NCBI GenBank assembly: GCA_009783295.1
Contig: WRHK01000027.1
Span: 1-48,621, forward strand
Length of the DNA: 48,621 nucleotides
Direction of reading: 5' to 3'
Source: Promicromonosporaceae bacterium
GTDB lineage: Bacteria; Actinomycetota; Actinomycetes; Actinomycetales; Cellulomonadaceae
Shown here: one piece after another, positions 27,586-44,122 of the stretch
How positions within the stretch are numbered: position 1 is the first letter of the stretch
Layout of the letters: every line of letters begins with the position of its first letter
Notes under the pieces: generated by a model
Told to the model about the DNA's origin: nothing
Seen by the model: the letters and a program-made list of their open reading frames with translations, nothing else
Database searches by the model: none
Made by a program: the position numbers and the translations under genes

Positions 27586-30129
27586 TCAGCCCGCGACCGC
27601 CAGGTCGGCCGTCACGGGCAGGTCGGCGCTCGACGTCCCCGCGGCCAGCCGGTAGGTCGCGGGCTGCACCCGCAACGCCCCGGCGTGCAGCCAGTCTTCG
27701 CCCGACGTCGCCCCGCGGGACCCCGCGTCCCACACGGCCAGGCGCCGCACGTCGAACGGCACGACGACGTCACGCGTCTCCCCCGGCGCCAGCACGACGC
27801 GCGCGAAGCCCAGCAGCAGGCGGCGCGGCGTGCCGAGCGGCAGGTCCTGGGGCGGCAGCGCGTAGACCTGGACCAGCTCGTGCGCGGGGCGCTCGCCCGT
27901 GTTGGCGACGCGCACCGTGGCGGCGAGGCCGGCGGCGTCGTCGTCGGACGCGACCCCGAGCGGCACGTGCCGCAGCGACGGCGCGGGCGCCGGGACGCTC
28001 CCTTCCGAGAGCTCGAGGCCTTGGTACTCGACGCGCGTGTACGTGAGGCCGTGCCCGAACGCGAACGCCGGCTCCCGGTCGGTGTGCCGGTAGGTGGCCT
28101 TCTGCCGGGCCGTGTCGTAGTCGAGGATGTCGCCGGCCTGGGCCTCGTCGACGGGCCACTGCTGGGCCAGCCGGCCGGCCGGCTCGGCGTCGCCCGCGAG
28201 CACGTCCACGAGCCCGTGCCCGAGCTCCTGCCCGCCGTGGCTCGACCAGACGACGGCGCGGGCACGCGCCGCCACGGGCGGCAGCACGTACGGGAAGCTC
28301 GACACGATCGTCAGCACCGTCGTCGGGTTGGCCTCCTGGGCGACGCGCAGCAGCTCGGCGGCGCACTCGGGCAGCCGCAGGTGCGGCCGGTCCTGCGTCT
28401 CGCGGCCCGCGAGGTGCGGGTCGTTGCCGACGGCGACGACGACGACGTCCGCCCCGGCCGCCGCGTCCCGCACGGCCTCGTGACCCGAGACCACGGTGCG
28501 CTGGACGAACCGCTCGGCCTCCTCGACCGACAGCCCGTCCGCACCGGCGAGCAGGGTGCCGCGCGTGACGCGCAGCCACTTGTTGGACCCGAGGTGCTGG
28601 AACGACACGGTGCCGTCGGGGTGCAGGTGGCGGCGGAACGACTCCTGGACCACCCAGCCGCCCACGCGGTCGGCGTCGGCGTGCGCGGGCCAGGCGGCGC
28701 CGGTCAGCACGCGGCCCGACGCCTGGGAGCGCAGGGTCACGATGCCGTCGCCCCAGTCGGTGACGTCCCACAGGGCGGCGCCGCCCGCGCTCTCGCCGTC
28801 GGCGGAGACGACGGCGCCGTCCTCGCTCGCGACCAGGTAGGCGTCGGTGCTCACGGCGCGCAGGGCCACGGTGTCGGCCCCGGTCACGCCCGTGACGGCC
28901 GCGTCCCCGAACCGCTCGCACAGCGCCGCCTGCAGCGACACCGCGTACGGCGGCGTGCCCGAGTACCAGTCCGTGAGCACGGCGTCGGCGAGCGGCCCCA
29001 CGACCGCCACGCGGCGCGGCGCGGCGAGCGGCAGCACGCCGTCGTTCGCCAGCACGACCACCGACCTCGCCGCCGCCTCGCGGGCGAGGGCGCGGTGCTC
29101 GGGCAGGTCGATGGCGTCGGCGCCGATGCCCGCGTACGGATCCGCCGGGCCGCCGTTCACATCGAGGTCGAGCTCGCCCGTGCGGATGCGCAGGTGCAGC
29201 AGCCGCAGCACGGCGCGGTCGACGTCGGCCTCCGTGACCAGGCCCCGCTCGAGCGCCTCCGTGAGGCGCTCGACCGTGTGCTGGGACGCGGCGTCGCCGT
29301 CGGTGAACGAGTCGAGGCCGGCCTTGAGGGCGGCCGCGTGCGACTCGACGTGGTCGGCGAACGCCCGCTGCACGGTGACGAGCGCCGTCGGCGCCCACGC
29401 GTCGGAGACCAGGGCGATCTCGTCGGGCGCCCAGGAGCGCAGCTCGTCGAACAGCGCGCCGCTGGTGTGCGCGGGCTCGCCGTTGACGCGGTTGTACGAC
29501 GGCATGACCGCCCCGGCCACGCCCTGCTCGACCGGCTCGCGGAACGCGGCGAGCTCCTCCTCGTGCAGCGTCCGCTGGGACAGCTCGGAGCTGGTCGACG
29601 AGCGGTCGACCTCGTTGTTGTACCCGAGGAAGTGCTTGAGGGTGGGCACCGTCTTCCACACCGTCGGGTGGGAGCCGCGCAGGCCGCGCGAGTACGCCGT
29701 GGCCAGGTGGGCGGTCAGGTGCGGGTCCTCGGAGTAGCCCTCCTCGTTGCGGCCCCAGCCCGGGTGCCGCAGCGTGTTGACGACCGGGGCCCACACGTTG
29801 AGGCTCACGTGCGGGTTCTCGGCGTGCTTGGCCCGCTGCTCCGTGGCGACCATCTCCCCCAGCCGCTCCAGCAGCTCCGGGTCCCATGTGGCGCCCAGGC
29901 CCACGGCCTGCGGCAGCACCGTGGCGCGGCCCAGCCAGGCGACGCCGTGCAGCGCCTCGGCACCCGTGTGGAACGGGGCCAGGCCCAGCCGCTCGACGGC
30001 CGGGGAGTGCTGGTGGAGCATGGCCACCCGCTCCTGCGGGGTCAGGCGGGACAGCAGGTCCTTGGCGCGGTCGATCGCGGGGAGCGACGGGTCGCGGAAC
30101 GGTGCTGTGGTCAGGTCGTCGGCGCTCAT
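27586..30129 (-). CDS. GH3 beta-glycosidase with inserted beta-trefoil (fascin-like) domain
   Basis: The 847-residue cytoplasmic enzyme releases terminal beta-linked sugars. The GH3 barrel includes KHFLGYNNE (about 165-173) and the nucleophile Asp243 in ALVSDAWAP. The second alpha/beta domain is interrupted at about 422-545 by a sequence with beta-trefoil/fascin-like repeats (LRAVSTDAYLVASEDGAVVS; VSFQHLGSNKWLRV). A fibronectin-III-like domain closes the protein (NTGERPAHELVQVYA). Start ATG overlaps the stop of the GH31 gene by 4 bp, so it is translated in coupling as the last gene of a GH42-GH31-GH3 operon. Beta-glucosidase fits the context; beta-xylosidase is possible. Confidence 0.88.
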   Translation of the reverse strand: MSADDLTTAPFRDPSLPAIDRAKDLLSRLTPQERVAMLHQHSPAVERLGLAPFHTGAEALHGVAWLGRATVLPQAVGLGATWDPELLERLGEMVATEQRAKHAENPHVSLNVWAPVVNTLRHPGWGRNEEGYSEDPHLTAHLATAYSRGLRGSHPTVWKTVPTLKHFLGYNNEVDRSSTSSELSQRTLHEEELAAFREPVEQGVAGAVMPSYNRVNGEPAHTSGALFDELRSWAPDEIALVSDAWAPTALVTVQRAFADHVESHAAALKAGLDSFTDGDAASQHTVERLTEALERGLVTEADVDRAVLRLLHLRIRTGELDLDVNGGPADPYAGIGADAIDLPEHRALAREAAARSVVVLANDGVLPLAAPRRVAVVGPLADAVLTDWYSGTPPYAVSLQAALCERFGDAAVTGVTGADTVALRAVSTDAYLVASEDGAVVSADGESAGGAALWDVTDWGDGIVTLRSQASGRVLTGAAWPAHADADRVGGWVVQESFRRHLHPDGTVSFQHLGSNKWLRVTRGTLLAGADGLSVEEAERFVQRTVVSGHEAVRDAAAGADVVVVAVGNDPHLAGRETQDRPHLRLPECAAELLRVAQEANPTTVLTIVSSFPYVLPPVAARARAVVWSSHGGQELGHGLVDVLAGDAEPAGRLAQQWPVDEAQAGDILDYDTARQKATYRHTDREPAFAFGHGLTYTRVEYQGLELSEGSVPAPAPSLRHVPLGVASDDDAAGLAATVRVANTGERPAHELVQVYALPPQDLPLGTPRRLLLGFARVVLAPGETRDVVVPFDVRRLAVWDAGSRGATSGEDWLHAGALRVQPATYRLAAGTSSADLPVTADLAVAG

Positions 30130-32429
30130 CGGGCGGCCTCCTCGTCGAGGGTGATGGTCACGGTGCCGGCGCCGCGGGTGCTCGCCTCGCGGGCGCCGGC
30201 CTTCAGGGTCCAGGTCCCGGGCGCCTCGTCGGCGGTCGCGGTGACGCGGTCGCCGTCGCGCCGGACGCGGAACGTCGCGGGCGCTCCGGTGCCGCCGGGC
30301 ACCGTGACCGCCTGGTCGAACCCGTCCGGCAGCTCGTGGGCGTGCAGCGTGACGCCGTCGGCCCACGCGTACTCGGGGGCGTCGTCGTGCGCGCCGACGG
30401 GCAGCACCGTGCCCGGGCGCACGTACAGCGGCAGCGAGCCGAAGCCGTGCTGCTCGCGCACCCAGCCCGGGCCGGTCACCGTGCTGCCGTCCAGGAGGGA
30501 CGTCCACGTGCCCTCCGGCACGTAGACGTCCACGGACCCGGTCGCGCTGAACACGGGGGCCACGACCAGCGTGTCGCCCAGCATGAACTGGGTGTCCACG
30601 GGGTGGGCGCCGCGGTCCTCGGGGAACTCCAGCACCATGGGCCGCAGCATCGGCAGGCCCTGGGTGTGGGCCTCGTCGGCCAGGCGCCCGAGGTACGGCA
30701 TGAGCGACATCTTGAGGCGCGTGAAGCGGCGGGCCACGTCCACGGCCTCGTCGTCGAAGGCCCACGGCACGCGGTAGCTCGTGTTGCCGTGCAGCCGCGA
30801 GTGGGAGGACAGGAGCCCGAACGGCAGCCAGCGCTTGAACACCCCGGCGTCCGGGGTGCCCTCGAAGCCGCCGATGTCGTGCGACCAGTACCCGAACCCG
30901 GACAGCGCGAGCGACAGCCCGCCGCGCAGGGTCTCGGCCATCGAGGCGTAGGTGGAGTCGTTGTCGCCGCCCCAGTGGACGGGCAGCTGCTGCCCGCCGG
31001 CCGTGGCCGAGCGCGCGAACAGCACGGCCTCGCCCTCGCCGCGGCGGCGCTCCAGCAGGCGGAAGACCGTCTCGTTGTAGAGCTGCGTGTAGTAGTTGTG
31101 CATCCGCTGCGGGTCGGAGCCGTCGTGCCAGACGACCTCGTCGACGGGGATCCGCTCGCCGAAGTCGGTCTTGAACGTGTCGACGCCCTGGTCGATCAGC
31201 GTCTCGAGCTTCCCCGCGAACCACGCGGCCGCCTCGGGGTTGGTGAAGTCCACCAGGCCCATGCCTGCCTGCCACATGTCCCACTGCCAGACGCCGCCGT
31301 CGGTGGTGCGCAGCAGGTACCCGCGCTCGGCCGCCTCGGCGAACAGGGGCGAGCGCTGACCGATGTACGGGTTGATCCAGACGCACACCTTGAGGCCGCG
31401 CTCGTGCAGGCGCTCCAGCATGCCGACCGGGTCGGGGAACACGCGCGGGTCCCACTCGAAGTCGCACCACTGGTACTCGCGCATCCAGAAGCAGTCGAAG
31501 TGGAACACCGACAGCGGGATCTCCCGCTCGCGCATCCCGTCGATGAAGCTGGTCACGGTGGCCTCGTCGTACGACGTCGTGAACGACGTCGACAGCCACA
31601 GGCCGAACGACCAGGCCGGGACCCGCGCGGGCCGGCCGGTCAGGGCCGTGTAGCGGCGCAGCACGTCCTTGGGCGTGGGCCCGGCGATGACGTAGTACTC
31701 GAGCGACTCGCCCGCCACCGAGAACTGCGTGCGCGTGTTCACCTCGGCGCCCACCTCGAACGACACGCGCTCGGTGTGGGCGACGAACACGCCGTACCCG
31801 TGGGACGACAGGTAGAACGGCACGTTCTTGTACGCCTGCTCGGACGACGTGCCGCCGTCCTCGTTCCAGACGTCGACCTCCTGGCCGTTCTTCACGAACG
31901 CACCGAACCGCTCGCCCAGGCCGTAGACGCTCTCGCCCGGCTCGAGGGACAGCTGCTCGTGCACCCACGTGCCCACGGGCAGCGGGCCGGAGCCGTCGGA
32001 CGTCATGTAGCCCACGGACTTCGGCAGGCTCGACGTGAGCGGGCGGCCGTCCTGCTCGAACTCGATGCGCCATGGACCGCTGCGCCGCACCCGGACGGTG
32101 AGGCCGTCGGCGTCGAGCAGCGCCTCCTCGTCGTCGACCTTGAGGATCGGGGTGTAGCCGTCCTGCCCCGCCACGGGGAAGGACGGGCCGTGCGAGGCGG
32201 CGCCCGCGTGGTGCGTGATCCGCACGCGGACGACGCCGGGTGCGGGCGCGCCGAGCTCGACCGTGAGCATGGGCCGGTTGAGCGTGTCACCGCGGTGGGC
32301 GATCCGCGCCGTCGGCGCGTAGGCCGTGAGGGTGCCTGCGGCCTCGTCGGCGCGCACGTCGTCGACCTCCACCGCGTACAGCGGCGCCACGCCGCGGCGG
32401 GCCTTCCAGTAGCCGTCAGTGAACTTCAT
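30126..32429 (-). CDS. GH31 alpha-xylosidase (YicI type)
   Basis: The 767-residue enzyme should remove alpha-1,6-xylose from the non-reducing end of xyloglucan oligosaccharides or isoprimeverose. Its barrel closely follows E. coli YicI: HFDCFWMREYQWCDFEWDP (Cys-Phe at 313-314, linked to xylose specificity), nucleophile Asp422 in FKTDFGERIP and acid/base Asp489 in HWGGDNDSTYASM. No signal peptide, so it works on imported sugar. ATG at 32429 has AAGGAA upstream and lies 35 bp after the GH42 gene. Operon with GH42 and GH3. Confidence 0.92.
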   Translation of the reverse strand: MKFTDGYWKARRGVAPLYAVEVDDVRADEAAGTLTAYAPTARIAHRGDTLNRPMLTVELGAPAPGVVRVRITHHAGAASHGPSFPVAGQDGYTPILKVDDEEALLDADGLTVRVRRSGPWRIEFEQDGRPLTSSLPKSVGYMTSDGSGPLPVGTWVHEQLSLEPGESVYGLGERFGAFVKNGQEVDVWNEDGGTSSEQAYKNVPFYLSSHGYGVFVAHTERVSFEVGAEVNTRTQFSVAGESLEYYVIAGPTPKDVLRRYTALTGRPARVPAWSFGLWLSTSFTTSYDEATVTSFIDGMREREIPLSVFHFDCFWMREYQWCDFEWDPRVFPDPVGMLERLHERGLKVCVWINPYIGQRSPLFAEAAERGYLLRTTDGGVWQWDMWQAGMGLVDFTNPEAAAWFAGKLETLIDQGVDTFKTDFGERIPVDEVVWHDGSDPQRMHNYYTQLYNETVFRLLERRRGEGEAVLFARSATAGGQQLPVHWGGDNDSTYASMAETLRGGLSLALSGFGYWSHDIGGFEGTPDAGVFKRWLPFGLLSSHSRLHGNTSYRVPWAFDDEAVDVARRFTRLKMSLMPYLGRLADEAHTQGLPMLRPMVLEFPEDRGAHPVDTQFMLGDTLVVAPVFSATGSVDVYVPEGTWTSLLDGSTVTGPGWVREQHGFGSLPLYVRPGTVLPVGAHDDAPEYAWADGVTLHAHELPDGFDQAVTVPGGTGAPATFRVRRDGDRVTATADEAPGTWTLKAGAREASTRGAGTVTITLDEEAAR

Positions 32430-32464
32430 CGTCACCGGTTCCTTGCGTCTCGTGTCTCGTGGTC

Positions 32465-34498
32465 TCAGGAGCTCTTCGCCGGGGTCAGCACGGCGGCGTC
32501 GTGGGCGGGCAGCGTCACGGCGTCGGCGACGTCGCGGCCCGTGAGCAGGTCGGTCCAGCGGCCGGGCACCGCGACGGTGCGGGCCGTGTCGCTGCGGTTG
32601 AGCAGGAACACCGCGTCGCCGCGGACGACGGCCTCGACGCCCCCGGCCGCGACGGCGCCCGGCACCGCCGGCTCGATCGCGCAGCGCGCGAGGGCGTCGG
32701 CCAGGACGGCGCCCAGCAGCGGCTCGTCGAGCACCGTGCCGACGTACCAGACGGACCCACCCGGGCCCTCCGGGTCGCGGCGCGTCACGGCGGGCAGGCC
32801 GGCGAGGTAGCCCTCGGCGAACGTGGCGAGCACGGTGGCGTCGTCGGCCCGCAGCAGCTCGCCGTGGACCGTGGCGCGGCCCCCGCCGGGGAGCTCGGCC
32901 CACGGGCCGGGCTCGGCCGCGACGGCGACCCCGGCGTCGGGCAGCGCCACCCACTCCTCGCCGCTCGCCCCGGCCAGGTCGGCGACCCGGGCGGGGAACC
33001 GGCCGGGCACCACGTGGGCGTTGCCGTCGGCCACGCCCGTCATCGGGCCGACGACCACGCCGGCCCCGCGCGCGGCGGCCTTGCGCAGGGCGGCCTCGGC
33101 CGCGTCGTCGAGCACGTACGTCTGCGGCACGACCACCAGGTCGTACGCGTCGAGCGACGCCCCGGGCCGCACGACGTCGACCGCGACGCCCCGGTCCCAG
33201 AGCGGGCGGTAGAAGGCGCGCACCTGGTCGAGCGTGCGCAGGCGCTCGGTGACGCGGCCCGGCTCCTCGGCCGCCCACCACGACTCCCAGTCGAACAGCA
33301 GCGCCGTGCGGGCGGGCACGCGCGTCCCAGCCACGGGGCGCAGGCGCGCGAGGTCGGCGCCCAGCCGCTGCACCCCACGGTGCACGCGGGTGTCCACGCC
33401 GGCGTGCGGCAGCATCGCCGAGTGGAAGCGCTCGGCGCCCACCGTGGAGGCCCGCCACTGGAAGAAGCAGACGCCGTCCGCGCCGCGGGCCACCGCCTGG
33501 AGCGAGTCGAGCCGCAGGCGCTCGGGGGTGCGGGGCAGGTTGTGCTCGCGCCACGACGTCGCGCCCGCGGCCTGCTCCATGAGCATCCAGGGCGCGCCGT
33601 CCCCCAGCCCGCGCATCAGGTCCTGGACCAGGGCCGAGTCGGCGGGCGAGCGCGGGTCGGCGAGGTCCGGGTACTGGTCGTCGGCGACGACGTCGACCTC
33701 GCCGGCCCAGGCCCAGTAGTCCGCGAGCGCGAAGAAGCCCATGAAGTTGGTGGTGACCGGCACCGTGACGCCGGCGGCGCGGATCGCGTCGCGCTGCTCG
33801 CGGTAGCAGGCGAGCAGCTCGTCGGACGTGAACCGGCGGAAGTCGAGCGACTGCGTCGGGTTGACCAGGTACGGGGTGCGGCGCGGCGGCAGCACGTCGT
33901 CGAAGCTCCGGTAGCGCTGCGACCAGAAGGTGGTGCCCCAGGCGGCGTTGAGGCCGTCGACCGTGCCGTACCGCTCGCGCAGCCAGCGGCGGAACTCCCG
34001 CGCGGCCTCCTCGCCGTGGTCCACCTGCCCGTACTCGTTGCCCACGTGCCACATGCGCACGGCGGGGTGAGTGGCGTAGCGGGCCGCGAGGTCGCGCGTG
34101 ATGGCCAGGGCCGCGGCGCGGTAGACCCGCGACGACGGGCTGAACTGGTTGCGCGACCCGGGCACCAGGCGCACGCCGTCGCGGTCGACCGGCAGCGTGT
34201 CGGGGTGGTCGACGCCGAGCCACGGGGGCGGCGACGCGGTCGGGGTCGCCAGGTCGACGGCGATGCCGTGGGCGTGCAGCAGGTCGAGCACCTCGTCCAT
34301 CCAGGCGAAGTCGCGCACGCCCGGCTCGGGCTCGTAGCGGGCCCACGAGAACACGCCGACGGTCACGAGGTTCACCCCCGCCTCACGCATGAGGCGGGCG
34401 TCCTCGCGCCACACGGCGGGGTCCCACTGCTCGGGGTTGTAGTCGCCCCCGTAGAGGATGCCCAGGTCGTCCGTGACCTGGTCGAAAATAGGCTGCAC
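32465..34498 (-). CDS. GH42 beta-galactosidase
   Basis: The 677-residue cytoplasmic enzyme hydrolyses terminal beta-galactosides. The GH42 barrel shows YGGDYNPEQW near the start, acid/base Glu155 in MWHVGNEYG and nucleophile Glu308 in WMLMEQAAG, followed by the trimerisation and C-terminal beta domains. GTG at 34498 is chosen because GGAGAT lies six bases upstream; the open frame continues upstream, but that part contains the predicted operator and promoter. First gene of the operon. In a xyloglucan setting it would take galactose off the side chain, a role more often filled by GH2 or GH35. Confidence 0.9.
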   Translation of the reverse strand: MQPIFDQVTDDLGILYGGDYNPEQWDPAVWREDARLMREAGVNLVTVGVFSWARYEPEPGVRDFAWMDEVLDLLHAHGIAVDLATPTASPPPWLGVDHPDTLPVDRDGVRLVPGSRNQFSPSSRVYRAAALAITRDLAARYATHPAVRMWHVGNEYGQVDHGEEAAREFRRWLRERYGTVDGLNAAWGTTFWSQRYRSFDDVLPPRRTPYLVNPTQSLDFRRFTSDELLACYREQRDAIRAAGVTVPVTTNFMGFFALADYWAWAGEVDVVADDQYPDLADPRSPADSALVQDLMRGLGDGAPWMLMEQAAGATSWREHNLPRTPERLRLDSLQAVARGADGVCFFQWRASTVGAERFHSAMLPHAGVDTRVHRGVQRLGADLARLRPVAGTRVPARTALLFDWESWWAAEEPGRVTERLRTLDQVRAFYRPLWDRGVAVDVVRPGASLDAYDLVVVPQTYVLDDAAEAALRKAAARGAGVVVGPMTGVADGNAHVVPGRFPARVADLAGASGEEWVALPDAGVAVAAEPGPWAELPGGGRATVHGELLRADDATVLATFAEGYLAGLPAVTRRDPEGPGGSVWYVGTVLDEPLLGAVLADALARCAIEPAVPGAVAAGGVEAVVRGDAVFLLNRSDTARTVAVPGRWTDLLTGRDVADAVTLPAHDAAVLTPAKSS

Positions 34499-34514: not shown

Positions 34515-34543
34515 ATGACTTTGTCGAAGCGCTTCGCTAACCT
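34515..34543 (+). promoter_or_regulatory. Candidate promoter for GH95-lacI operon
   Basis: -35-like ATGACT (34515-34520), 17-bp spacer, -10 TAACCT (34538-34543). The LacI-type palindrome lies inside the spacer, so binding would block polymerase. Confidence 0.45.
34525..34536. promoter_or_regulatory. LacI-family operator (site 1)
   Basis: Perfect palindrome CGAAGCGCTTCG in the GH42/GH95 divergent promoter region. The central CG and overall form are typical of LacI-family sites. The same core occurs at 38014-38031. Confidence 0.8.
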
Positions 34544-34614: not shown

Positions 34615-36930
34615 ATGCACCACCTGCGCTACGACTCGCCGGCGACCCGCTGGGTGGAGGCGCTGCCGGTCGGCAACGGCGTGCGTGCCGCGATGTGCGA
34701 GGGGCGGCCGGGCGGCGAGCGGCTCTGGCTCAACGACCTGCGCGCCTGGTCCGGCCCCGTGGACCGCGACCCGCTCGACGCCGTCGAGTCGCCCGGGCCC
34801 CAGCAGCTCGCGGCCGTCCGCGCGGCGGTCGCCCGCGGCGACGCGCGCGAGGCGGAGCGGCTCCTCATGCAGCTTCAGACGCCGTGGGTGCAGGCCTACC
34901 TGCCGCTCGGCGAGCTCGAGGTGGCGGTCGGCACCGCCCCCGCCGACGACGGCGACTACGCCCGCGGCCTCGACCTGCGCGACGCCACCGCCTGGCACAC
35001 CTATACGTCCGATGGCGCCCGCGTGCGCCACCAGACCTGGGCGGACTCGCGGGGCGGAGCCGTCGTCCACCTCGTGGAGTCCGACCGGCCGGTGCGCCTG
35101 ACGGTGCGGTTCACCAGCCCGCTGCGCGCGGACGCCGCGGCCACGGCAGCGCCTGAAGGCGCGCTGGTCCACGTGCTCGTCCCGCCCGTCGACGTCGCCC
35201 CGGGCCACGAGGTGGTGCCCGAGCCGGCGCGCTACGCCCCCACCGACTCCCGGTTCGCGGTCGCCGTGCGCGCGGTCGGCGACCCGGACGCCGTCGTCGT
35301 CGATGGCACCCTGCGGACCGGCACGGCGGCCATCCACCTGCTGCTGGTCGGCACCGCCGTGACGCACGACCAGGCCGCCGGAACGGTCGTGGCACCCGCG
35401 GACGCCGTCGCCGCGGCGCTCGCGCTGGTCGCCGACGGCGAGGGCGCCGCCGACCGCTGGGACGCGCACGTCGCCGCGCACCGCGAGCTCTACGACCGCG
35501 TCGAGCTGACCCTGCCCGCCGCCGCGCCGGACCGCCCCACGGACGCACGCGTCCTCGCCTCGGCCGACGCCGACGACCCCGCCCTCGCCGCCCTCGCCTT
35601 CCACTACGGGCGCTACCTGCTGCTGGCGTCCTCCCGCCCGGGCGGCCTGCCGGCCACGCTCCAGGGCATCTGGAACGCGGAGCTCCCCGGGCCCTGGTCC
35701 AGCGCGTACACCACCAACATCAACCTGCAGATGGCCTACTGGGCGGCCGAGACGACGGCGCTGCCCGAGTGCCACGAGCCGCTGCTGCGCTTCGTGGAGC
35801 GCCTCGCGGCGACCACGGGTGCCGAGGCCGCGCAGCGCCTGTACGGGGCGCGGGGCTGGACGGCACACCACAACTCCGACGCCTGGGGGGCCGCCGGGCC
35901 CGTCGGCGCAGGTCACGGCGACCCCGCCTGGGCGTCCTGGGTGTTCGGCGGCATCTGGCTGGCCCACCACCTGTGGGAGCACCACCAGTTCGGCGGCGAC
36001 GAGGAGTTCTGGCGCGAGCGGGCGCTGCCCGCACTCCAGGGTGCCGCGGACTTCGCGCTGGACTGGGTCCAGAGCGACGGCCGCACCGCCTGGACCAGCC
36101 CGTCGACGTCACCCGAGAACCACGTGCTCGCCCCGGACGGCACGCCCACGGGCGTCGCGACGACCGCCACGATGGACGCCGAGCTGCTGCGCTGGCTCGC
36201 GTCCGTGGTGGGCGGCGAGCTCGCCGACGTCGTCGCGCTGCTGCCCCCCGCCCGTGTGGGGCCGCGCGGCACGCTGCTCGAGTGGGCCGACGACCTCCCC
36301 GAGGCCGAGCCCGAGCATCGGCACCTGTCCCACCTGGTCGGCACGTTCCCGCTCGCGTCCGTCACGCCCGCGACGACGCCGGACCTCGCCGCCGCCACGG
36401 CGCGCAGCATCGAGGCGCGCGGCCCGGAGTCGACGGGCTGGTCGCTGGCGTGGCGCGCCGCCCTGTGGGCGCGGCTCGGCGACGGAGACCGCGTGCACGG
36501 CGAGCTCCGCAAGGCCCTGCGCCCCGCCCGCGACGACGCCGGTGCCCACCGCGGCGGCCTCTACCCCAACCTGTTCTCCGCGCACCCGCCCTTCCAGGTC
36601 GACGGCAACCTGGGCCTCACGGCCGCGGTCGCCGAGGCGCTGCTGCAGAGCCACGAGACGTCCGGCGGCGAGCGCCTGCTGCGCCTGCTGCCCGCCCTGC
36701 CCACCGCGTGGCCCGACGGCGCCGTGCGCGGGCTCCGGGCCCGGGGTGGCCTGCGGGTCGACCTCGCGTGGGCCGGCGGGGCCCTGACCAGGGCGCACGT
36801 CCACAACGACACGCCACGCCCGGCGACGCTCGCCGTCGCCGTCGGGCCGCAGACTGCCGACCGGCGCATCACGATCCCCCCGGCGTCGAGCCTCGCGCTC
36901 ACGCCCGAGCAATCCCTAGGAGCCTCATGA
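34615..36930 (+). CDS. GH95 alpha-L-fucosidase (or alpha-L-galactosidase)
   Basis: The 771-residue enzyme is an inverting GH95 glycosidase acting on terminal alpha-1,2-L-fucose (some members take L-galactose). Catalytic residues match the family: Asn368 and Asn370 in [11 protein letters not shown], Glu501 in TSPENH, and Asp663 in [13 protein letters not shown]. The last motif differs slightly from the common QxDGNFG. No signal peptide, which implies that fucosylated oligosaccharides are imported intact. ATG at 34615 has GAGGA upstream. It overlaps lacI by 4 bp and is divergent from the GH42 operon. Confidence 0.87.
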
Positions 36931-37940
36931 CGACCATCGAGGACGTCGCCCGCCTCGCCGAGGTCTCGACGTCGACCGTCTCGTACGCCCTGTCGGGCAA
37001 GCGGCCGATCTCGGCGACCACGCGGCGGCGCATCGAGGCGGCGGTGGCCGAGCTGGGCTACCGCCCGCACGCAGGCGCGAAGGCGCTCGCCTCGGCCCGC
37101 AGCGACGTCATCGGGCTCATGGTGCCGCTGCGCGCGGGCATCGACGTCACCGTGATCATGCAGTTCGCGGGCGGCGTGGTGCTGCGCGCGCGGGAGCACC
37201 AGCACGACGTCCTGCTGCTCACCAAGGACGACCTGGACGGCCTCGAGCGCGTCACCGACGGCTCGATGGTCGACGCCCTGGTGGTCATGGACGTGGAGGC
37301 CGACGACGCCCGCGTGCCGATCCTCCAGCGCACCCGGCAGCCGTCGGTGCTCATCGGTCTGCCGCGGATGGCCGCGGGCCTGTCGTGCATCGACCTCGAC
37401 TTCGAGGCCGCCGGCCGGCTGGCCGCCCACGAGCTCGCGAGGCTGGGCCACCAGGAGATCGCGATGGTGGGCTCGCCGCCGGAGGTGCTGGAGCGGCACA
37501 CGTCGTACGCGGACCGCGTGACACGCGGGTTCCTCGGCACGGCCGACGACGAGGGCGTCACGGCCCGCGCCGTGAGCTGCCCCGTGAGCCCGCCGGAGGT
37601 CGACGCCGTGGTCGAACGGCTCCTGGCCGACTCCCCCGGGCTCACGGGCCTGTTCGTGCACAACGAGCGCGCGCTTCCGCACGTGCTGCACGCCCTGCGC
37701 GAGCGCCGGCGCTCCGTGCCCAAGGACGTCTCGCTGATCGCGCTCTGCCCCGAGGACGTCGCGCTGTCGCAGCAGGTGCCGCTCACCAGCATCGACCTGC
37801 CCGCCACGACCATCGGCTCGCTCGCGGTCGACATGGTCATGTCCCGGCTCGCCGACGCGGCCTACCCGGCCGAGACGCGCCTCATCGCGCCCACCCTCAC
37901 GGAACGGGCGAGCACCCGCGCACCCCGGGGCGCGCGCTAG
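36927..37940 (+). CDS. LacI-family transcriptional regulator
   Basis: The 337-residue repressor has the LacI helix-turn-helix ([23 protein letters not shown]) with hinge helix ([11 protein letters not shown]), then a periplasmic-binding-protein-like sugar domain. The start overlaps the GH95 stop (ATGA) with AGGAG upstream, so it is coupled to GH95 expression. The two palindromes at 34525-34536 and 38014-38031 are its likely operators, meaning that it controls the glycosidase operon, its own operon and the importer. The inducer is probably a xyloglucan-derived sugar, an inference from the neighbours. Confidence 0.92.
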
Positions 37941-37983
37941 CACTCCTTCTCGCCCACGAGACGAGAAAGTCGCGAGGAACCCC

Positions 37984-38013: not shown

Positions 38014-38031
38014 CGTCGAAGCGCTTCGACG
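38014..38031. promoter_or_regulatory. LacI-family operator (site 2)
   Basis: CGTCGAAGCGCTTCGACG, a perfect 18-bp palindrome placed directly after the -10 box and covering the predicted transcription start. It contains the 12-bp core of site 1. Confidence 0.85.
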
Positions 38032-38095
38032 ATGAGCGCAACGGTGAGCCGACGGCGGCGCACCGTGGGGTGGTTTCCGCACGAAGGAGTGACTC

Positions 38096-39088
38096 GTGAC
38101 CGTCCATCAGGTGACCTCTGCCGAGGTGCTCCTCGACGACGTCTCGACGCGCCGCGCCTCGGCACCGCGCACCGAGCCGCGGCGCAAGGGGCCGCGCACG
38201 TCGCGCACGATGTTCCTTCTGCTGCTGCCGTTCCTGGTGCTCGTCTTCGCGTTCAGCTACCTGCCCCTGGCCGGCTGGGTCACGGCGCTCTACGACTACA
38301 AGCCGGCGCTCGGCCTGGGCGGCAGCCAGTTCGTGGGGCTCCAGTGGTTCCGCATGCTCGTCGGCTCGCGCACCCAGCTCGAGCAGATCGGGCAGGTCAT
38401 GGCGAACACCTTCGCCATGAGCGGCCTGGGCATCCTGACCTCGCTGTTCCCGGTGTTCTTCGCGATCCTGCTCAACGAGGTGCGGGCCAAGTGGTTCCGC
38501 AACATGGTGCAGACGCTCACCACCCTGCCGAACTTCATCTCGTGGGTGCTCGTCTACGCGATCGCGTTCTCGCTGTTCTCCACGAGCGGCCTCGTCAACA
38601 CCACCCTGCACGACTGGGGCCTGATCACCACCCCGATCCACTTCCTCGACTCCGACAACCACGTGTGGCTGACGATGCTCGCCTGGAGCCTGTGGAAGGG
38701 CCTCGGGTGGGGCGCCATCATGTACCTCGCCGCGATCGCGGGCATCGACCCCACGCTCTACGAGTCGGCGCGGATCGACGGCGCCAACCGCTTCCAGCTC
38801 ATGCGGTACATCACCTTCCCGCAGCTCATGCCGACGTACGTCGTGCTGCTGATGCTGTCGGTCGCGAACCTGCTGAACAACGGCATGGAGCAGTACTACG
38901 TGTTCCAGAACGCGTTCAACCGCGACCACATCCAGGTGCTCGACCTGTACGTCTACAACATCGGCCTCACGGGCAACAGCCTGTCGATGGCCGCGGCGCT
39001 GAGCATGCTCAAGAGCGTGGTGTCGGTGCTCCTGCTGCTTTTCGTCAACTGGGTCGCCAAGCGCGTGCGCGGCACGTCGATCATCTGA
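38096..39088 (+). CDS. ABC sugar importer permease (LplB type)
   Basis: The 330-residue inner-membrane protein has six predicted helices and the EAA loop that contacts the ATPase (YESARIDGANRFQLMRYITF). Sequence style (LPLAGWVTALYDYKP near the N-terminus, YVYNIGL near the C-terminus) is that of the LplB/YtcP class of CUT1 importers that pair with large binding proteins. GTG at 38096 has AAGGAG at an ideal distance. First gene of the importer operon; the second permease starts 10 bp later. Confidence 0.92.
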   Translation: MTVHQVTSAEVLLDDVSTRRASAPRTEPRRKGPRTSRTMFLLLLPFLVLVFAFSYLPLAGWVTALYDYKPALGLGGSQFVGLQWFRMLVGSRTQLEQIGQVMANTFAMSGLGILTSLFPVFFAILLNEVRAKWFRNMVQTLTTLPNFISWVLVYAIAFSLFSTSGLVNTTLHDWGLITTPIHFLDSDNHVWLTMLAWSLWKGLGWGAIMYLAAIAGIDPTLYESARIDGANRFQLMRYITFPQLMPTYVVLLMLSVANLLNNGMEQYYVFQNAFNRDHIQVLDLYVYNIGLTGNSLSMAAALSMLKSVVSVLLLLFVNWVAKRVRGTSII

Positions 39089-39098
39089 GGGGCCGGAC

Positions 39099-40040
39099 AT
39101 GACTGCCATCACCGCCGCTGCGCTCGCAGCCAAGCCGACTCGCCTGAAGCGCGAGCGCGGGGACGTCCCGTTCTCCGCGTGGAACTACCTGTGGTTCGCC
39201 ATCTTCGCGCTCGTGTGCGCCTACCCGTTCTGGTACCTGATCGTGAACTCGGTCAGCGCCAACGACGTCAGCGCGCTGGGCCAGGTGCGCGTCTGGCCGC
39301 AGGGCTTCCACCTGTCGAACTACACCCAGATCCTGCACCTGGACGGCCTCACGGGCGCCGCGCTCATCTCGCTGGCCCGCACCGTCATCGGTACGGCGTT
39401 CACGGTGCTGGCGTCCGCGTTCCTCGGGTTCATGTTCACCCAGGAGCGCATGTGGAAGCGGGCCCTGTGGTACCGGCTCGTGGTCATCACCATGTACTTC
39501 AACGCCGGCCTGATCCCGGTGTACGTGACGATGAAGACGCTGGGCCTGACCAACTCGTTCTGGGTCTACATCCTCCCGGCGATCGTGCAGCCCTTCAACA
39601 TCATCCTCGTCAAGACGTACATCGAGTCGCTGCCCTCCTCGCTCCAGGAGGCGGCGGAGGTCGACGGGGCCAGCACGCTGCGGATCTTCTTCTCGATCAT
39701 CCTGCCGAACACGACGCCCATCCTCGCCACGGTCGCGATCTTCAGCGCCGTCGCCCAGTGGAACTCGTTCCAGGACACCCTGCTCTACATCACGGACCAG
39801 AAGCTCTACTCGCTGCAGTACCTGCTCTACATGTTCATCAACCAGGCCAGCAGCCTGGCTCAGGCCGCGCAGAACGCCCAAGGGAACCTTGGCGCCCTCG
39901 CGTCGGCAGCATCGAAACAGACCCCCACGTCGATCCGCATGACCGTCGCGGTGATCGTCGTCCTGCCGATCATCTTCGTCTACCCGATGTTCCAGCGTTA
40001 CTTCGTCAAGGGGATCATGCTCGGCGCCGTCAAGGGCTGA
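39099..40040 (+). CDS. ABC sugar importer permease (YtcP/CUT1 type)
   Basis: The 313-residue partner permease has six membrane segments and the EAA loop LQEAAEVDGASTLRIFFSII. It should form a heterodimer with the upstream permease. It carries a C-terminal segment ending in FQRYFVKGIMLGAVKG, characteristic of this class. ATG at 39099. No nucleotide-binding subunit is encoded nearby, so the pair likely uses a shared MsiK-type ATPase encoded elsewhere. Confidence 0.92.
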   Translation: MTAITAAALAAKPTRLKRERGDVPFSAWNYLWFAIFALVCAYPFWYLIVNSVSANDVSALGQVRVWPQGFHLSNYTQILHLDGLTGAALISLARTVIGTAFTVLASAFLGFMFTQERMWKRALWYRLVVITMYFNAGLIPVYVTMKTLGLTNSFWVYILPAIVQPFNIILVKTYIESLPSSLQEAAEVDGASTLRIFFSIILPNTTPILATVAIFSAVAQWNSFQDTLLYITDQKLYSLQYLLYMFINQASSLAQAAQNAQGNLGALASAASKQTPTSIRMTVAVIVVLPIIFVYPMFQRYFVKGIMLGAVKG

Positions 40041-40074
40041 CCGCGCCATCACCTCTCACCGAGAAAGGCAACCC

Positions 40075-41835
40075 ATGCGTTCCAGGAAGGCCATCGCGCT
40101 GCTGGTGGCACCGCTCGTCGGGGTCCTCGCCCTGACTGCGTGCTCGAGCGGCGGCAGCGCTGCCACCGACAAGTCCCAGACTGTCAACGTCGACAAGGAC
40201 TGGTCCAAGGCCGCACCGATCACGATCGACGTGTTCGACGGCCTCGCCAACTACCAGGGCATCCAGTCCGGGTGGTTCGGCAAGATCGTCCAGGACAAGT
40301 TCAACATGAAGCTCAACATCATCGCCCCCAACGTGGCGGGCGGCGGTGACACGCTCTACAACACGCGCGTGGCCGGCGGGAACCTCGGTGACCTCATCAT
40401 CACCGACAAGGGCCAGAAGATGGACGAGCTGATCCAGGGCGGTCTGCTCCAGGACGACTCGTCGTACTACGGCTCCATGAAGAGCATGAAGACGTACGAC
40501 GCCGCCGTCCAGAAGCTCAACGACGGCAAGAAGGGCGTGTACGCCTTCCCGACGCAGGTCTCGGCGCAGAAGCCGACCGTGTCGTCCGAGGGCCTCGACC
40601 CGACGTTCGGCCCGTTCCTCCGCTGGGACTACTACGCCCAGCTCGGCTACCCCAAGATCAACACGCTCGAGGACCTGCTGCCCGTCCTCAAGCAGATGCA
40701 GGACGCCCACCCCACCGCCGACAACGGCAAGAAGGTCTACGCGGTCGACCTCTTCAAGGACTGGGACGGCAACATGATGGTGATGGGCAAGCAGCCCACC
40801 ACCCTCTACGGCTACGACGAGATGGGCTTCGTCCTGGCCAAGGCCGACGGCTCCGACTACCAGAGCATCGTCGACTCGGACTCGCAGTACGTCCGTGCGC
40901 TGAAGTTCTACTACCAGGCCAACCAGATGGGCCTGGTCGACCCTGAGTCGACCACGCAGAACTACGACACGATGTTCTCGAAGTACCAGAACGGCCAGGT
41001 GCTGCTGTCCTGGTGGCCGTGGCTGGGCCAGTCGGCGTACAACACGACGGCGAACACCCAGGCCGGCAAGGGCTTCGAGCTCGTGCCCATGAAGGACCAG
41101 AACATCTTCTCCTACGGTGCCGCCGTCTACGGCGCCACGCAGGTCATGGCCATCGGCTCCAAGGCGAAGGACCCGGCCCGCATCGCCGCGTTCATCGACT
41201 GGCTGTACTCCCCTGAGGGCATCCTCGCCTCGTCGTCGCAGACGATGGGCGGCGCCGGCCCGCAGGGCCTCACCTGGGACATGAAGAACGGCAAGCCCGA
41301 GCTCACCGACTTCGGCCAGAAGGCCATCCTGGGCGACGGCACGGCTGAGGTCCCGGCCAGCTGGGGCGGCGGCCAGTACGCCAAGGGCGTCTCGGCGCTC
41401 AACGTGACCACGGTGCTGCCGATCGACACCGACCCGAACACCAAGATGCCGTACAACTACAAGTACTGGCCGCAGGTGCAGGCGCTCACGTCGACGCCGC
41501 TGTCGAAGGACTGGTCGTCGCACATGGGCAACGCCACGTCGACCATGGACTACCTCCAGAAGAACCACGAGGTCCTCGTGGCCCCCGGCTCCGGCTACGC
41601 CGCCCCGGCGGACTCCTCGGAGATCCAGACCATCCGCAACCAGGTCAAGGCGTCCATCGTCGAGTACTCGTGGAAGATGGTCTTCGCGAAGAACGACGCC
41701 GACTTCTCCTCGCTGCTCAAGCAGATGCAGGACACGGTCAAGGGCCTCGGCTACCAGAAGGTGCTCGACTTCGACATGGCGAACGCGAAGGCGCAGAACC
41801 AGGCCCGCCTCGACGTCACGGCCGCGTTCAAGTGA
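40075..41835 (+). CDS. ABC importer substrate-binding lipoprotein (LplA/YtcQ type)
   Basis: The 586-residue protein captures the oligosaccharide outside the membrane and delivers it to the permeases. It begins with a lipoprotein signal peptide and lipobox LTAC with Cys23 as lipidation site. The size, larger than usual CUT1 binding proteins, matches the LplA/YtcQ group that handles complex oligosaccharides. ATG at 40075 has GAAAGG upstream. Last gene before a strong hairpin, which may raise its mRNA level relative to GH43. Confidence 0.92.
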   Translation: MRSRKAIALLVAPLVGVLALTACSSGGSAATDKSQTVNVDKDWSKAAPITIDVFDGLANYQGIQSGWFGKIVQDKFNMKLNIIAPNVAGGGDTLYNTRVAGGNLGDLIITDKGQKMDELIQGGLLQDDSSYYGSMKSMKTYDAAVQKLNDGKKGVYAFPTQVSAQKPTVSSEGLDPTFGPFLRWDYYAQLGYPKINTLEDLLPVLKQMQDAHPTADNGKKVYAVDLFKDWDGNMMVMGKQPTTLYGYDEMGFVLAKADGSDYQSIVDSDSQYVRALKFYYQANQMGLVDPESTTQNYDTMFSKYQNGQVLLSWWPWLGQSAYNTTANTQAGKGFELVPMKDQNIFSYGAAVYGATQVMAIGSKAKDPARIAAFIDWLYSPEGILASSSQTMGGAGPQGLTWDMKNGKPELTDFGQKAILGDGTAEVPASWGGGQYAKGVSALNVTTVLPIDTDPNTKMPYNYKYWPQVQALTSTPLSKDWSSHMGNATSTMDYLQKNHEVLVAPGSGYAAPADSSEIQTIRNQVKASIVEYSWKMVFAKNDADFSSLLKQMQDTVKGLGYQKVLDFDMANAKAQNQARLDVTAAFK

Positions 41836-41902
41836 TGACGGCCTGACCACAGACGTGACGACGGCGGCTCCGTGACCCCGGTCGCCGTCGCCGCGACACC
41901 CC

Positions 41903-41934
41903 GAGGGGGAGGCTCCACCCGGAGCCTCCCCCTC
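41903..41934 (+). terminator. Hairpin between binding-protein gene and GH43 gene
   Basis: A perfect 14-bp stem (41903-41916 with 41921-41934) with an ACCC loop, followed by a short T-containing stretch. It probably acts as a partial terminator or 3'-stabiliser, allowing high binding-protein expression with less GH43. Confidence 0.8.
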
Positions 41935-41994
41935 ACCCCTTTGCCCCGCCCCCGCCCGCCCCGCTCGCCGGGCCGCCCCCGAGAGAAGGTCCCG

Positions 41995-43497
41995 TTGTCC
42001 CTCGCCGCCAACCCCGTGATCCCCGGCTTCTTCCCGGACCCGTCCGTGTGCCGGGTCGGCGACACGTACTACCTGGCGTGCTCGAGCTTCGAGTACCTCC
42101 CCGCGATCCCCGTGTTCCGCAGCACCGACCTGGTGCGCTGGGAGCAGGTCGGCAACGTGATCGACCGACCCGGGCAGGTCGTGTTCCCGGCCGACATGCC
42201 GTCGTCGGCGGGCGTGTACGCGCCGACGCTGCGGCACCACGACGGGCGCTTCCGGCTCATCGTGACCGTGGTGGGTGCGGTCGGGAACGTCGTGTTCACC
42301 GCCACCGACCCGGCGGGCCCGTGGTCGGACCCCATCCCGCTGCCGGGCGTGCCGGGCATCGACCCCGACCTCGCGTGGGACGACGACGGCACGTGCTGGT
42401 GCACCGTCGCCGGCGTCTCCCAGGTGCGCATCGACCCGGCCACGGGCGAGACGTCGGGCGCGCTGCGGCCCCTGTGGTCGGGCGGCGCAGACGCGCAGGC
42501 GCCTGAGGCCCCGCACCTCTACCACGTGGGCGACCACTGGTACCTGCTCATCGCCGAGGGCGGCACGGAGCGCGGCCACGCCGTCTCGGTGGCCCGGTCC
42601 ACCAGCCCCACCGGGCCCTTCGAGCCTTGCCCCGACAACCCCGTGCTCACGCACCGCGGCACCCACCTGCCGGTGCAGAACACCGGCCACGCCGACCTGG
42701 TCCAAGCGCCCGACGGCTCCTGGTGGATGGTGCTGCTGGGCGTGCGCCCCGGCGGCGGCACCCCCGGGTGGCACGTGCTGGGCCGCGAGACCTTCCTGAC
42801 GCCCGTGACCTGGGAGGACGGCTGGCCCCGTCCGGCCCGCGTGACCGAGCAGGTCGAGGTGCCGTGGCCCGTGGCGCCCGCGGCCGACGAGCGGTTCCGC
42901 GACGACTTCGACGCCGCAGCGCTCGACCCGGCCTGGGTCACGCCCCGGCGCCTGCCCGCCGAGGTCGCAAGCACGACGTCGCGCGCCGGCCACCTGACGG
43001 TCACCGGCACCGGCGCGACGCTCGACGACCCCGACGTCGCGTTCGTGGGCGTGCGCCAGCGCCACCGCGCCCTCACGGTGCGCGCGTCGCTCGACGTCGC
43101 CGACGGCGCCCGCGGTGGGCTGGCCCTACGCCTCGACGAGGAGCACCACTACGAGGTCGACGTCGCCGACGGCGTCGCCATGGCCGTGGCCCGGATCGGG
43201 CCGCTGCGCACCGTCGTGGGCTCGCACCCGGTGGGCGACGGGCCCGTCGTGGTGCGGATCGGCATCACCCCGACCGACGGGTGGGACCCACGCCAGGGCC
43301 CCGACGTCGTCACGCTGGGGGTCGAGGCCGCCGACGGCGATCTCGTCGAGCTCGCCGCACTGGACGGGCGCTACCTGTCGACCGAGGTCGCGGGCGGGTT
43401 CACCGGGCGGATCGTCGGGCCGTACGCCGTCGAGGGCGACGTCGCCGTGGACTGGGTCGAGGTCGTGCCCGGGCCTACTGCCCCGAGTGCGGGCTGA
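41995..43497 (+). CDS. GH43 beta-xylosidase / alpha-L-arabinofuranosidase
   Basis: The 500-residue cytoplasmic enzyme has the five-bladed GH43 propeller: base Asp15 in GFFPDPSVCRVGDTYYL, the middle Asp in GIDPDLAWDDDG and the acid Glu in APEAPHLYHVGDHW. A C-terminal concanavalin-like domain follows (about 300-500). The NPVIPGFFPDPS and SSFEYLPAIPVF pattern resembles the group that includes arabinofuranosidases of Bacteroides xyloglucan loci, but beta-xylosidase cannot be excluded. TTG at 41995 has AGAAGG seven bases upstream; the frame is open further upstream but covers the hairpin. Overlaps the convergent yesL by 23 bp. Confidence 0.87.
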   Translation: MSLAANPVIPGFFPDPSVCRVGDTYYLACSSFEYLPAIPVFRSTDLVRWEQVGNVIDRPGQVVFPADMPSSAGVYAPTLRHHDGRFRLIVTVVGAVGNVVFTATDPAGPWSDPIPLPGVPGIDPDLAWDDDGTCWCTVAGVSQVRIDPATGETSGALRPLWSGGADAQAPEAPHLYHVGDHWYLLIAEGGTERGHAVSVARSTSPTGPFEPCPDNPVLTHRGTHLPVQNTGHADLVQAPDGSWWMVLLGVRPGGGTPGWHVLGRETFLTPVTWEDGWPRPARVTEQVEVPWPVAPAADERFRDDFDAAALDPAWVTPRRLPAEVASTTSRAGHLTVTGTGATLDDPDVAFVGVRQRHRALTVRASLDVADGARGGLALRLDEEHHYEVDVADGVAMAVARIGPLRTVVGSHPVGDGPVVVRIGITPTDGWDPRQGPDVVTLGVEAADGDLVELAALDGRYLSTEVAGGFTGRIVGPYAVEGDVAVDWVEVVPGPTAPSAG

Positions 43498-44122
43498 TCG
43501 CGTCGCGGCCGTCGGATCCGGCGGCCGCGCGCGTGGTCATGCTGCGCAGCACGAACGCGGCACCGTACGCGGCGACCGAGCACCCGATCGTCGCGGCGAG
43601 CACCACGGATGCCGGCCAGGCGTAGAGCAGCAGGCCGCCGGCGACGGGGATCAGCAGCAGCACGCCGGCGCGCACGGGCTCGGCCAGCGGGAGCAGCACG
43701 GCGCTGCGCAGGGTCTGGCGGATCGGGGCGGTGTGCGTGCCGACGATGCCCAGCCCGCAGGCCAGCGCCGTCGCCAGGTACACCGCGCCCACGAGGCACA
43801 GCAGCCCCAGCACGGCCGTCGGGATGCCGGCCATCGACAGCCAGAACACGCCCGCGAACATGAGCATCGCGCACGGCACCAGCAGCGCGAGGTACACGGC
43901 CGTGCCGCGCGCGAAGTTGCGCCGGAACGCCGCGAGGTAGCCGCGCACCAGGTCGCCGCGCTCGTGGTCGGCGTACCGCGTGGTCACCTCGAGCAGCGAG
44001 CTGGTCGCGGCGCCGATCGTCACGAGCGGCACGCACGTGACCAGGTACAGCACGTTGAGCACCACGAAGAGGATGAGGGTGGTGACGCCCTGGATGGTGC
44101 GGCCGTCGGGGTCGATCTTCAC
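43475..44122 (-). CDS. YesL family membrane protein (DUF624)
   Basis: The 215-residue protein has about five hydrophobic segments and the DUF624 layout (LILFVVLNVLYLVTCVPLVT near the start). Genes of this family often accompany LplB-type sugar importers, but the biochemical role is unknown. GTG at 44122. It is on the opposite strand to the importer, convergent with GH43, and 4 bp after the rlmN stop, so it could also be read from the rlmN side. Confidence 0.82.
   Translation of the reverse strand: MKIDPDGRTIQGVTTLILFVVLNVLYLVTCVPLVTIGAATSSLLEVTTRYADHERGDLVRGYLAAFRRNFARGTAVYLALLVPCAMLMFAGVFWLSMAGIPTAVLGLLCLVGAVYLATALACGLGIVGTHTAPIRQTLRSAVLLPLAEPVRAGVLLLIPVAGGLLLYAWPASVVLAATIGCSVAAYGAAFVLRSMTTRAAAGSDGRDAISPHSGQ

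What the first reader, a model, noticed from the sequence alone, without database searches (positions are those of the whole stretch)
27586..44122. Complete intracellular set for fucosylated/arabinosylated xyloglucan oligosaccharides
Seen: GH95, GH42, GH31, GH3 and GH43 genes without signal peptides around one ABC importer and one LacI gene, with catalytic residues in place. Known: GH31 YicI-type enzymes take off alpha-1,6-xylose, GH95 alpha-1,2-fucose, GH42 beta-galactose, GH43 arabinose or xylose, GH3 beta-glucose. These are the linkages of plant xyloglucan side chains and backbone ends. Inference: the cell imports decorated oligosaccharides whole and trims them inside in the order Fuc/Ara, Gal, Xyl, Glc. 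A single actinobacterial locus covering every side-chain sugar is unusual.
Basis: partly seen in the sequence, partly recalled or inferred. Interest (0 to 1): 0.85.

Follow-up and report, generated by a model that had tools for sequence, protein, structure and literature searches.

The report
Xyloglucan-fragment uptake and trimming gene cluster
An actinobacterium related to Xylanimicrobium carries a gene cluster that most likely pulls whole decorated fragments of the plant-wall sugar xyloglucan into the cell and trims them inside; the strategy was already known from clostridia, and related clusters were found in many other actinobacteria.

Summary
The genes are real: GH3, YicI-type GH31, GH42, GH95, LacI, a CUT1-like ABC importer, GH43 and a DUF624 membrane protein, with catalytic residues in place and no signal peptide visible on the enzymes. 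Xyloglucan is the best-supported substrate. A profile of the binding-protein family matches the A. bescii xyloglucan binder 9PMY best among PDB sequences (E 6e-6; next 0.0015). Relatives keep GH42-GH31-GH3 beside the same importer. In two relatives a GH74 xyloglucanase homologue sits in the cluster behind the same operator. That operator (TCGAAGCGCTTCGA) lies in both control regions of the window and, exactly matched, at one other place in the genome, before a second LacI, ABC importer and YicI-type GH31. The cluster type is not rare: 67 related loci, 34 with GH95, 27 with GH31+GH42+GH3; but it is patchy (15 of 200 family genomes), and all five enzymes together are a minority because GH43 is accessory. 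Import-whole, trim-inside was shown in Ruminiclostridium cellulolyticum in 2016. Open: GH95 (L-fucose or L-galactose), GH43 (arabinose or xylose), GH3 (glucose or xylose); no fucose isomerase or mutarotase family was found. A new actinobacterial member of a known kind.

The parts
27586..30129 (-). GH3 exo-glycosidase, with a ~115-residue insert in the C-terminal domain; probable backbone beta-glucosidase
   Evidence: Pfam GH3 N, C and Fn3-like; best NCBIfam match Xyl3A at 360 bits, far below its 1250 cut-off; D243 and E577 invariant in an alignment of 18 sequences, this one included
30126..32429 (-). GH31 alpha-xylosidase, YicI type; overlaps the GH3 gene by 4 bases
   Evidence: NCBIfam NF007940 (alpha-xylosidase) 1211 bits vs cut-off 606; first four PDB sequences are YicI, best E 4e-273
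32465..34477 (-). GH42 beta-galactosidase
   Evidence: Pfam GH42 E 1.5e-141; PDB 9ta3 E 7e-160
34523..34536 (.). LacI-type operator GTCGAAGCGCTTCG between the divergent GH42 and GH95 genes
   Evidence: enrichment control
34615..36930 (+). GH95 alpha-L-fucosidase (or alpha-L-galactosidase)
   Evidence: Pfam GH95 E 1.3e-136; PDB 2rdy E 2e-154, 7kmq E 4e-125 (that 7kmq is the Xanthomonas xyloglucan-locus enzyme is recalled)
36927..37940 (+). LacI-family regulator
   Evidence: Pfam LacI and Peripla_BP_3
38015..38030 (.). LacI-type operator GTCGAAGCGCTTCGAC between LacI and the first permease gene
38096..39088 (+). ABC permease A (CUT1-like)
   Evidence: Pfam BPD_transp_1
39099..40040 (+). ABC permease B (CUT1-like)
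   Evidence: Pfam BPD_transp_1
40075..41835 (+). Solute-binding lipoprotein, probable xyloglucan-oligosaccharide binder
   Evidence: profile of 27 relatives: best PDB match 9PMY E 6e-6, next 5gx8 E 0.0015; as a single sequence 9PMY is the last of six matches, E 0.0027
41989..43497 (+). GH43 alpha-L-arabinofuranosidase / beta-xylosidase (GTG start)
   Evidence: PDB 5z5d (beta-xylosidase) E 1e-99, BoGH43A E 2e-92, BoGH43B E 5e-89
43475..44122 (-). DUF624 (MusI-like) membrane protein, probable transporter accessory
   Evidence: Pfam DUF624; NCBIfam MusI_fam 69 bits, below its cut-off of 160; similar gene in 62 of 67 related loci

Best explanation
A LacI-controlled xyloglucan-oligosaccharide utilisation locus. 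Outside the cell an endo-glucanase (probably the secreted GH5 on contig C47) cuts xyloglucan. The lipoprotein captures decorated oligosaccharides, and the two permeases, with an ATPase encoded elsewhere and perhaps the DUF624 protein, import them whole. In the cytoplasm GH95 removes alpha-1,2-fucose (or L-galactose), GH42 beta-1,2-galactose and GH43 arabinofuranose or beta-xylose; then GH31 and GH3 alternately remove alpha-xylose and beta-glucose from the non-reducing end. Without inducer, LacI sits on TCGAAGCGCTTCGA sites and represses the GH42-GH31-GH3, GH95-lacI and ABC-GH43 transcription units; a second ABC-GH31 unit elsewhere carries the same sites. Shown here by sequence: gene content, catalytic residues, operator conservation, homology of the binding protein. 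Inferred: substrate, order of action, transcription units, repression, ATPase sharing.
For: GH31 is a YicI equivalog well above cut-off. The SBP-family profile matches 9PMY best (E 6e-6, next 0.0015); 9PMY binds XXXG at 14 nM (PMC12710961, abstract). In 67 related loci: DUF624 62, GH31 48, GH3 44, GH42 41, GH95 34, GH29 14. A GH74 homologue with a signal-like N-terminus lies in two loci of different genera (L071, same contig as L029; L096) with operator-like sites just upstream. Within 200 family genomes GH74 occurs in 12 of 15 lipoprotein-positive and 40 of 185 negative genomes (Fisher p 8e-6). Operator: 115 sites (up to one mismatch) in 46 of 55 high-GC loci, against a mean of 0.5 and a maximum of 13 for 60 control palindromes. 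GH43 has the two B. ovatus XyGUL enzymes as second and third PDB match. Experimental precedent with GH42, GH31, GH3 and an essential ABC importer in R. cellulolyticum (PMC4780118).
Against: No expression, binding or activity data. 9PMY aligns over about 336 of 582 profile positions at a modest E-value, and with the single sequence it came sixth of six, behind alginate binders. GH3 scores nearer to beta-xylosidases than to the xyloglucan-active GH3 enzymes in the PDB list. The own genome has no match to PF15902, to a GH74 protein, to GH9 or to GH12, and no operator-like site was seen before its secreted GH5. No FucU or FucI family match, so use of released fucose is unexplained. The 12 low-GC loci have none of these operators, no GH3 and GH42 in only 1 of 12. 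The GH74 co-occurrence is not corrected for phylogeny.
Confidence: 0.85

Rival explanations
1. The locus serves complex glucuronoarabinoxylan oligosaccharides carrying alpha-xylose and L-galactose, as in the B. ovatus PUL-XylL, with GH95 as alpha-L-galactosidase and GH3 as beta-xylosidase.
For: The two B. ovatus xylan PULs hold GH3 and GH43, and PUL-XylL also GH31 and GH95 (PMC4491172, passages). Window GH95 has Thr366 at the position where the L-galactosidase has Thr and AfcA has His. GH3 scores best against a Xyl3A model, though far below its cut-off.
Against: GH31 is YicI type. GH42 is kept in 41 of 67 loci. The SBP profile finds the xyloglucan binder first. GH74 homologues sit behind the operator in two relatives. 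XacAfc95 has the same Thr and is fucose-specific (PMC8245568, passages).
Confidence: 0.07
2. The locus serves host or bacterial fucosyl-oligosaccharides such as 2'-fucosyllactose or blood-group glycans.
For: GH95 and GH42 occur in such pathways (general knowledge).
Against: Alpha-xylosidase and GH43 have no known role there (general knowledge); the SBP and GH74 links point to xyloglucan.
Confidence: 0.02
3. Xyloglucan locus in which small products (isoprimeverose, single XX or XG units) rather than whole heptasaccharides are imported.
For: YicI-type enzymes act on isoprimeverose (recalled); a second, different ABC importer with its own YicI-type GH31 carries the same operator in this genome.
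Against: The window SBP is the long form related to 9PMY, which prefers XXXG (PMC12710961); a full side-chain enzyme set would not be needed for isoprimeverose.
Confidence: 0.06

Closest known systems
Ruminiclostridium cellulolyticum xyloglucan cluster Ccel_2451-2458 (PMC4780118)
   Same: GH42, GH31 and GH3 without signal sequences beside an SBP and two permeases with no ATPase gene; oligosaccharides imported whole and trimmed in order. Its Fig. 12 legend shows comparable clusters in other prokaryotes, with alpha-fucosidase genes marked.
   Different: Two-component system with an AraC-like regulator instead of LacI; no GH95 or GH43 among the genes named for that cluster in the parts read; supplied by cellulosomal xyloglucanases.
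Anaerocellum bescii Athe_2052-2054 importer with Athe_2057 GH31 (PMC12710961)
   Same: SBP family (best PDB profile hit), permease pair, GH31; a putative GH42 and a putative alpha-fucosidase are named elsewhere in that genome.
   Different: Genes more scattered; GH74 enzyme CelF in the genome; no LacI control described in the parts read.
Bacteroides ovatus XyGUL with BoGH43A/B (PMC10952531)
   Same: BoGH43A and BoGH43B are the second and third PDB match of the window GH43.
   Different: Periplasmic trimming; no alpha-fucosidase in that XyGUL according to PMC10952531.
Xanthomonas XyGUL (PMC8245568)
   Same: GH95, GH31 and a beta-galactosidase acting in sequence.
   Different: GH35 in place of GH42; GH74 and an esterase in the locus; TonB-dependent transporters.

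Membership tests
Gram-positive xyloglucan-oligosaccharide uptake locus (R. cellulolyticum type) | GH31, GH42 and GH3 exo-enzymes without secretion signals, in one locus | tested here: met
   (signals judged by eye)
Gram-positive xyloglucan-oligosaccharide uptake locus (R. cellulolyticum type) | Importer of lipoprotein plus two permeases without own ATPase, adjacent to the enzymes | tested here: met
   kept together with the enzymes in relatives
Gram-positive xyloglucan-oligosaccharide uptake locus (R. cellulolyticum type) | Binding protein specific for xyloglucan oligosaccharides | tested here: inconclusive
   Homology to 9PMY only; binding not testable here
Gram-positive xyloglucan-oligosaccharide uptake locus (R. 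cellulolyticum type) | Secreted endo-xyloglucanase in the genome | tested here: inconclusive
   No match for PF15902, a GH74 protein, GH9 or GH12 (GH44 and GH16 not tested); of two GH5 matches one has a signal-like N-terminus and is nearest to BhCel5B, PDB 4v2x
Gram-positive xyloglucan-oligosaccharide uptake locus (R. cellulolyticum type) | Induction by xyloglucan | not testable with these tools
   needs expression data
Gram-positive xyloglucan-oligosaccharide uptake locus (R. cellulolyticum type) | Two-component AraC-like regulator beside the enzymes (as in R. cellulolyticum; not taken here as essential to the kind) | tested here: not met
   a LacI gene takes its place
GH31 YicI-type alpha-xylosidase | NCBIfam NF007940 above curated cut-off; catalytic aspartates | tested here: met
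   1211 vs 606 bits; D422, D489
GH95 | Catalytic Asn pair and general acid Glu | tested here: met
   N368, N370, E501, compared with the AfcA and BACOVA_03438 residues given
GH95 alpha-1,2-L-fucosidase (versus L-galactosidase) | Release of L-fucose from XXFG | not testable with these tools
   Thr366 does not decide
GH3 xyloglucan beta-glucosidase | Closest characterised relatives are glucosidases | tested here: inconclusive
   Best matches are beta-xylosidases, Xyl3A far below cut-off; a GH1 lies beside GH31 in 4 of the 14 family loci (one of the four checked by Pfam)
B. ovatus PUL-XylL-like xylan locus (rival) | Xylanase or xylan-specific endo-enzyme in the locus | tested here: not met
   None in the window locus, and no xylanase family among 30 ORFs of relatives scanned, out of 491 called in the flanks

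The most novel reading that the evidence does not exclude
Actinomycetota share an undescribed LacI xyloglucan regulon, readable from one operator (TCGAAGCGCTTCGA): a large-oligosaccharide importer with interchangeable side-chain modules (GH95 or GH29 for fucose, optional GH43), in some species a GH74, and in this genome a split-off second unit with its own LacI, a different importer and a second alpha-xylosidase for smaller fragments.
Probability: 0.55. Interest if true: 0.5.

Novelty: new member of a known kind. Interest (0 to 1): 0.35.

Why it matters
It gives a testable genetic marker (SBP family, GH31-GH42-GH3, operator) for xyloglucan use in actinobacteria, for which the paper searches made here listed no description by title or abstract, and it predicts the regulon without transcript data. 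It also frames clear tests of what GH95, GH43 and GH3 enzymes of this kind cut.

Tried and rejected
Rarity of the cluster type: rejected by the 67 related loci; rarity of the five-enzyme set: not rejected (2 of 67 stretches). GH74, GH9, GH12, FucU and FucI in the own genome: none found. Thr366 as proof of an L-galactosidase: rejected after passages of PMC8245568. Arabinoxylan-uptake model of R. cellulolyticum (PMC9675976, passages): enzymes named are GH51, GH43 and GH8, and GH31, GH95 and GH42 do not occur in its main text. Regions L156-L158 were fetched and not analysed. Searches for an earlier description in actinobacteria: none seen in the titles and abstract starts listed; the library holds only open-licence papers and most listed papers were not opened.
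Full report
Observation. Ten genes fill 27586-44122: GH3, GH31 and GH42 on the minus strand; GH95, lacI, two permease genes, a lipoprotein gene and GH43 on the plus strand; and a convergent DUF624 gene. Domain matches are far beyond chance except for the lipoprotein, which reaches no Pfam cut-off. Catalytic residues are in place. The GH31 is a YicI equivalog at twice the curated cut-off. None of the enzymes shows a signal sequence by eye; the binding protein has a lipobox.

Regulation. Two palindromes lie at 34523-34536 and 38015-38030, one in each intergenic control region. In the 3.98-Mb own genome the exact 14-base pattern gives 8 matches (both strands counted), in the window or at C6:79957-80018; with one mismatch allowed there are 20 matches against 6 for the reversed control. 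At C6 the sites are in tandem just before a second lacI gene (37% identical overall, 33 of the first 47 residues), followed by a different ABC importer and a second YicI-type GH31, 78% identical to that of the window and cut by the contig end. In 67 related loci, up to one mismatch, there are 115 sites in 46 of 55 high-GC loci and none in 12 low-GC loci; 60 control palindromes of the same half-site composition gave 0.5 sites on average, 13 at most. These loci share ancestry, so the numbers show conservation, not independent events.

Relatives. Searching 200 genomes of the family with the lipoprotein found it in 15, own included. The 14 others were read as 20-kb stretches: permeases in 13 of 14, LacI 12, GH31 11, GH42 11, DUF624 11, GH3 9, GH95 7, GH43 2 (several stretches are cut by their ends). 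A scan of genome contigs with an alignment of 17 sequences gave 67 loci, among them Microbacterium, Isoptericola, Promicromonospora, Myceligenerans, Antribacter, Demequina, Tessaracoccus, Agromyces, Brachybacterium, Actinomyces, Curtobacterium, Enterococcus and Fundicoccus. Counts over all 67: DUF624 62, GH31 48, GH3 44, LacI 42, GH42 41, GH95 34, GH43 19, GH29 14, GH1 7, GH74 2; GH31+GH42+GH3 27, plus GH95 19, plus GH43 as well 2 (L094, L102). GH95 with GH43 occurs in 6. So GH42-GH31-GH3 is the common core, GH95 frequent, GH43 accessory. All 12 low-GC loci have GH31 and a GH29 fucosidase and no GH95 or GH3; 11 have a GDSL esterase, 8 a GH43, 5 a GH1 and 1 a GH42; a sensor kinase was called in 12 and a response regulator in 7.

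Substrate. Four lines point to xyloglucan. First, a profile of 27 lipoproteins matches 9PMY best (E 6e-6; three entries of one other binder follow at 0.0015-0.0018; nothing else but a stray hit up to E 1); 9PMY is the A. bescii xyloglucan binder (PMC12710961: abstract, passages and section 5 read). As a single sequence, 9PMY came last of six. Second, a protein with a signal-like N-terminus beside the lipoprotein gene in Promicromonospora panici (L029/L071) matches GH74 xyloglucanases (E 8e-204) and has three operator-like sites, with one or two mismatches, upstream; in Microbacterium aurantiacum (L096) a GH74 homologue (44% identical, signal-like N-terminus) has an exact site just upstream. 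Third, GH74 is more frequent in genomes with the lipoprotein, 12 of 15 against 40 of 185, not corrected for phylogeny; the window's own genome is one of the three without it. Fourth, GH42+GH31+GH3 plus importer is the set proven in R. cellulolyticum, where the importer is essential for growth on xyloglucan (PMC4780118: abstract, passages, Discussion and part of the Fig. 12 legend read). That legend mentions comparable clusters with alpha-fucosidase genes, so the combination with a fucosidase is also in print.

What is not settled. GH95 has Thr366 where BACOVA_03438, an L-galactosidase, has Thr370 and AfcA has His419 (PMC4491172, passages), but XacAfc95 has Thr and is fucose-specific (PMC8245568, passages). 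BoGH43A, a close relative of the GH43, takes both arabinose and xylose (PMC10952531, passages). GH3 is nearest to beta-xylosidases but far below the NCBIfam cut-offs. The fate of fucose is unknown: no FucU or FucI family match; oxidative fucose routes were not tested. For the endo-enzyme, no match to GH74, GH9 or GH12 was found, but one of two GH5 matches (L034:1303-3003) has a signal-like N-terminus and is nearest to BhCel5B (PDB 4v2x, E 3e-159), a GH5_4 enzyme active on xyloglucan (PMC4817029, passages). GH16 and GH44 were not tested.

Setting. Ten of 11 same-genus genomes gave an rlmN stretch. In six without a locus gene in the 4-kb stretch, rlmN is followed by the DivIVA-like gene; one stretch is cut by the contig end. 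In the window the locus lies between rlmN and the DivIVA-like gene; in G034 and G090 it lies just beyond the DivIVA-like gene. In several other genera the cluster borders an amidohydrolase gene (Pfam for one) and genes read by eye as nucS and ATP synthase, which in this genome border the C6 unit. The likely history is a split of one ancestral cluster in this genus (inference).

Verdict. What is added here is the operator, the second unit, the breadth of the family and the link to GH74.

Noticed in passing
L145 (own genome C6:70001-86428), 9957-16428: Second operator cluster with a second LacI, a different ABC importer and a second YicI-type GH31 cut off by the contig end.
   Followed up: partly
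L034 1303-3003 (own genome C47): GH5 with a signal-like N-terminus, aligned almost end to end with BhCel5B; the only candidate endo-xyloglucanase found; no operator-like site seen upstream.
   Followed up: partly
window 27586-30129, residues ~430-545 of GH3: An insert of about 115 residues within the GH3 C-terminal domain, conserved in relatives; by eye like a beta-trefoil or fascin repeat, not tested.
   Followed up: no
window 3974-4053 (-): Actino-pnp RNA element, Rfam RF01688, 50 bits.
   Followed up: no
L105, L108, L109, L111-L113, L116, L118, L121, L124, L126, L127: Enterococcus-type loci carry the same importer with GH31 and a GH29 fucosidase, and 11 of 12 a GDSL esterase, perhaps for acetylated xyloglucan.
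   Followed up: partly
L030 12767-15904; L028 2024-3922: Flanking large multidomain protein with GH43 and CBM5/12 modules, and a GH35 beta-galactosidase, near the cluster in two relatives; relation to the cluster unknown.
   Followed up: no
L086: An 8-kb contig labelled Stenotrophomonas maltophilia holds an actinobacterial-looking copy; probably contamination of that assembly.
   Followed up: no
L154 (G067): rlmN of this same-genus genome reads with one internal TGA; could be a sequencing error or a broken gene.
   Followed up: no
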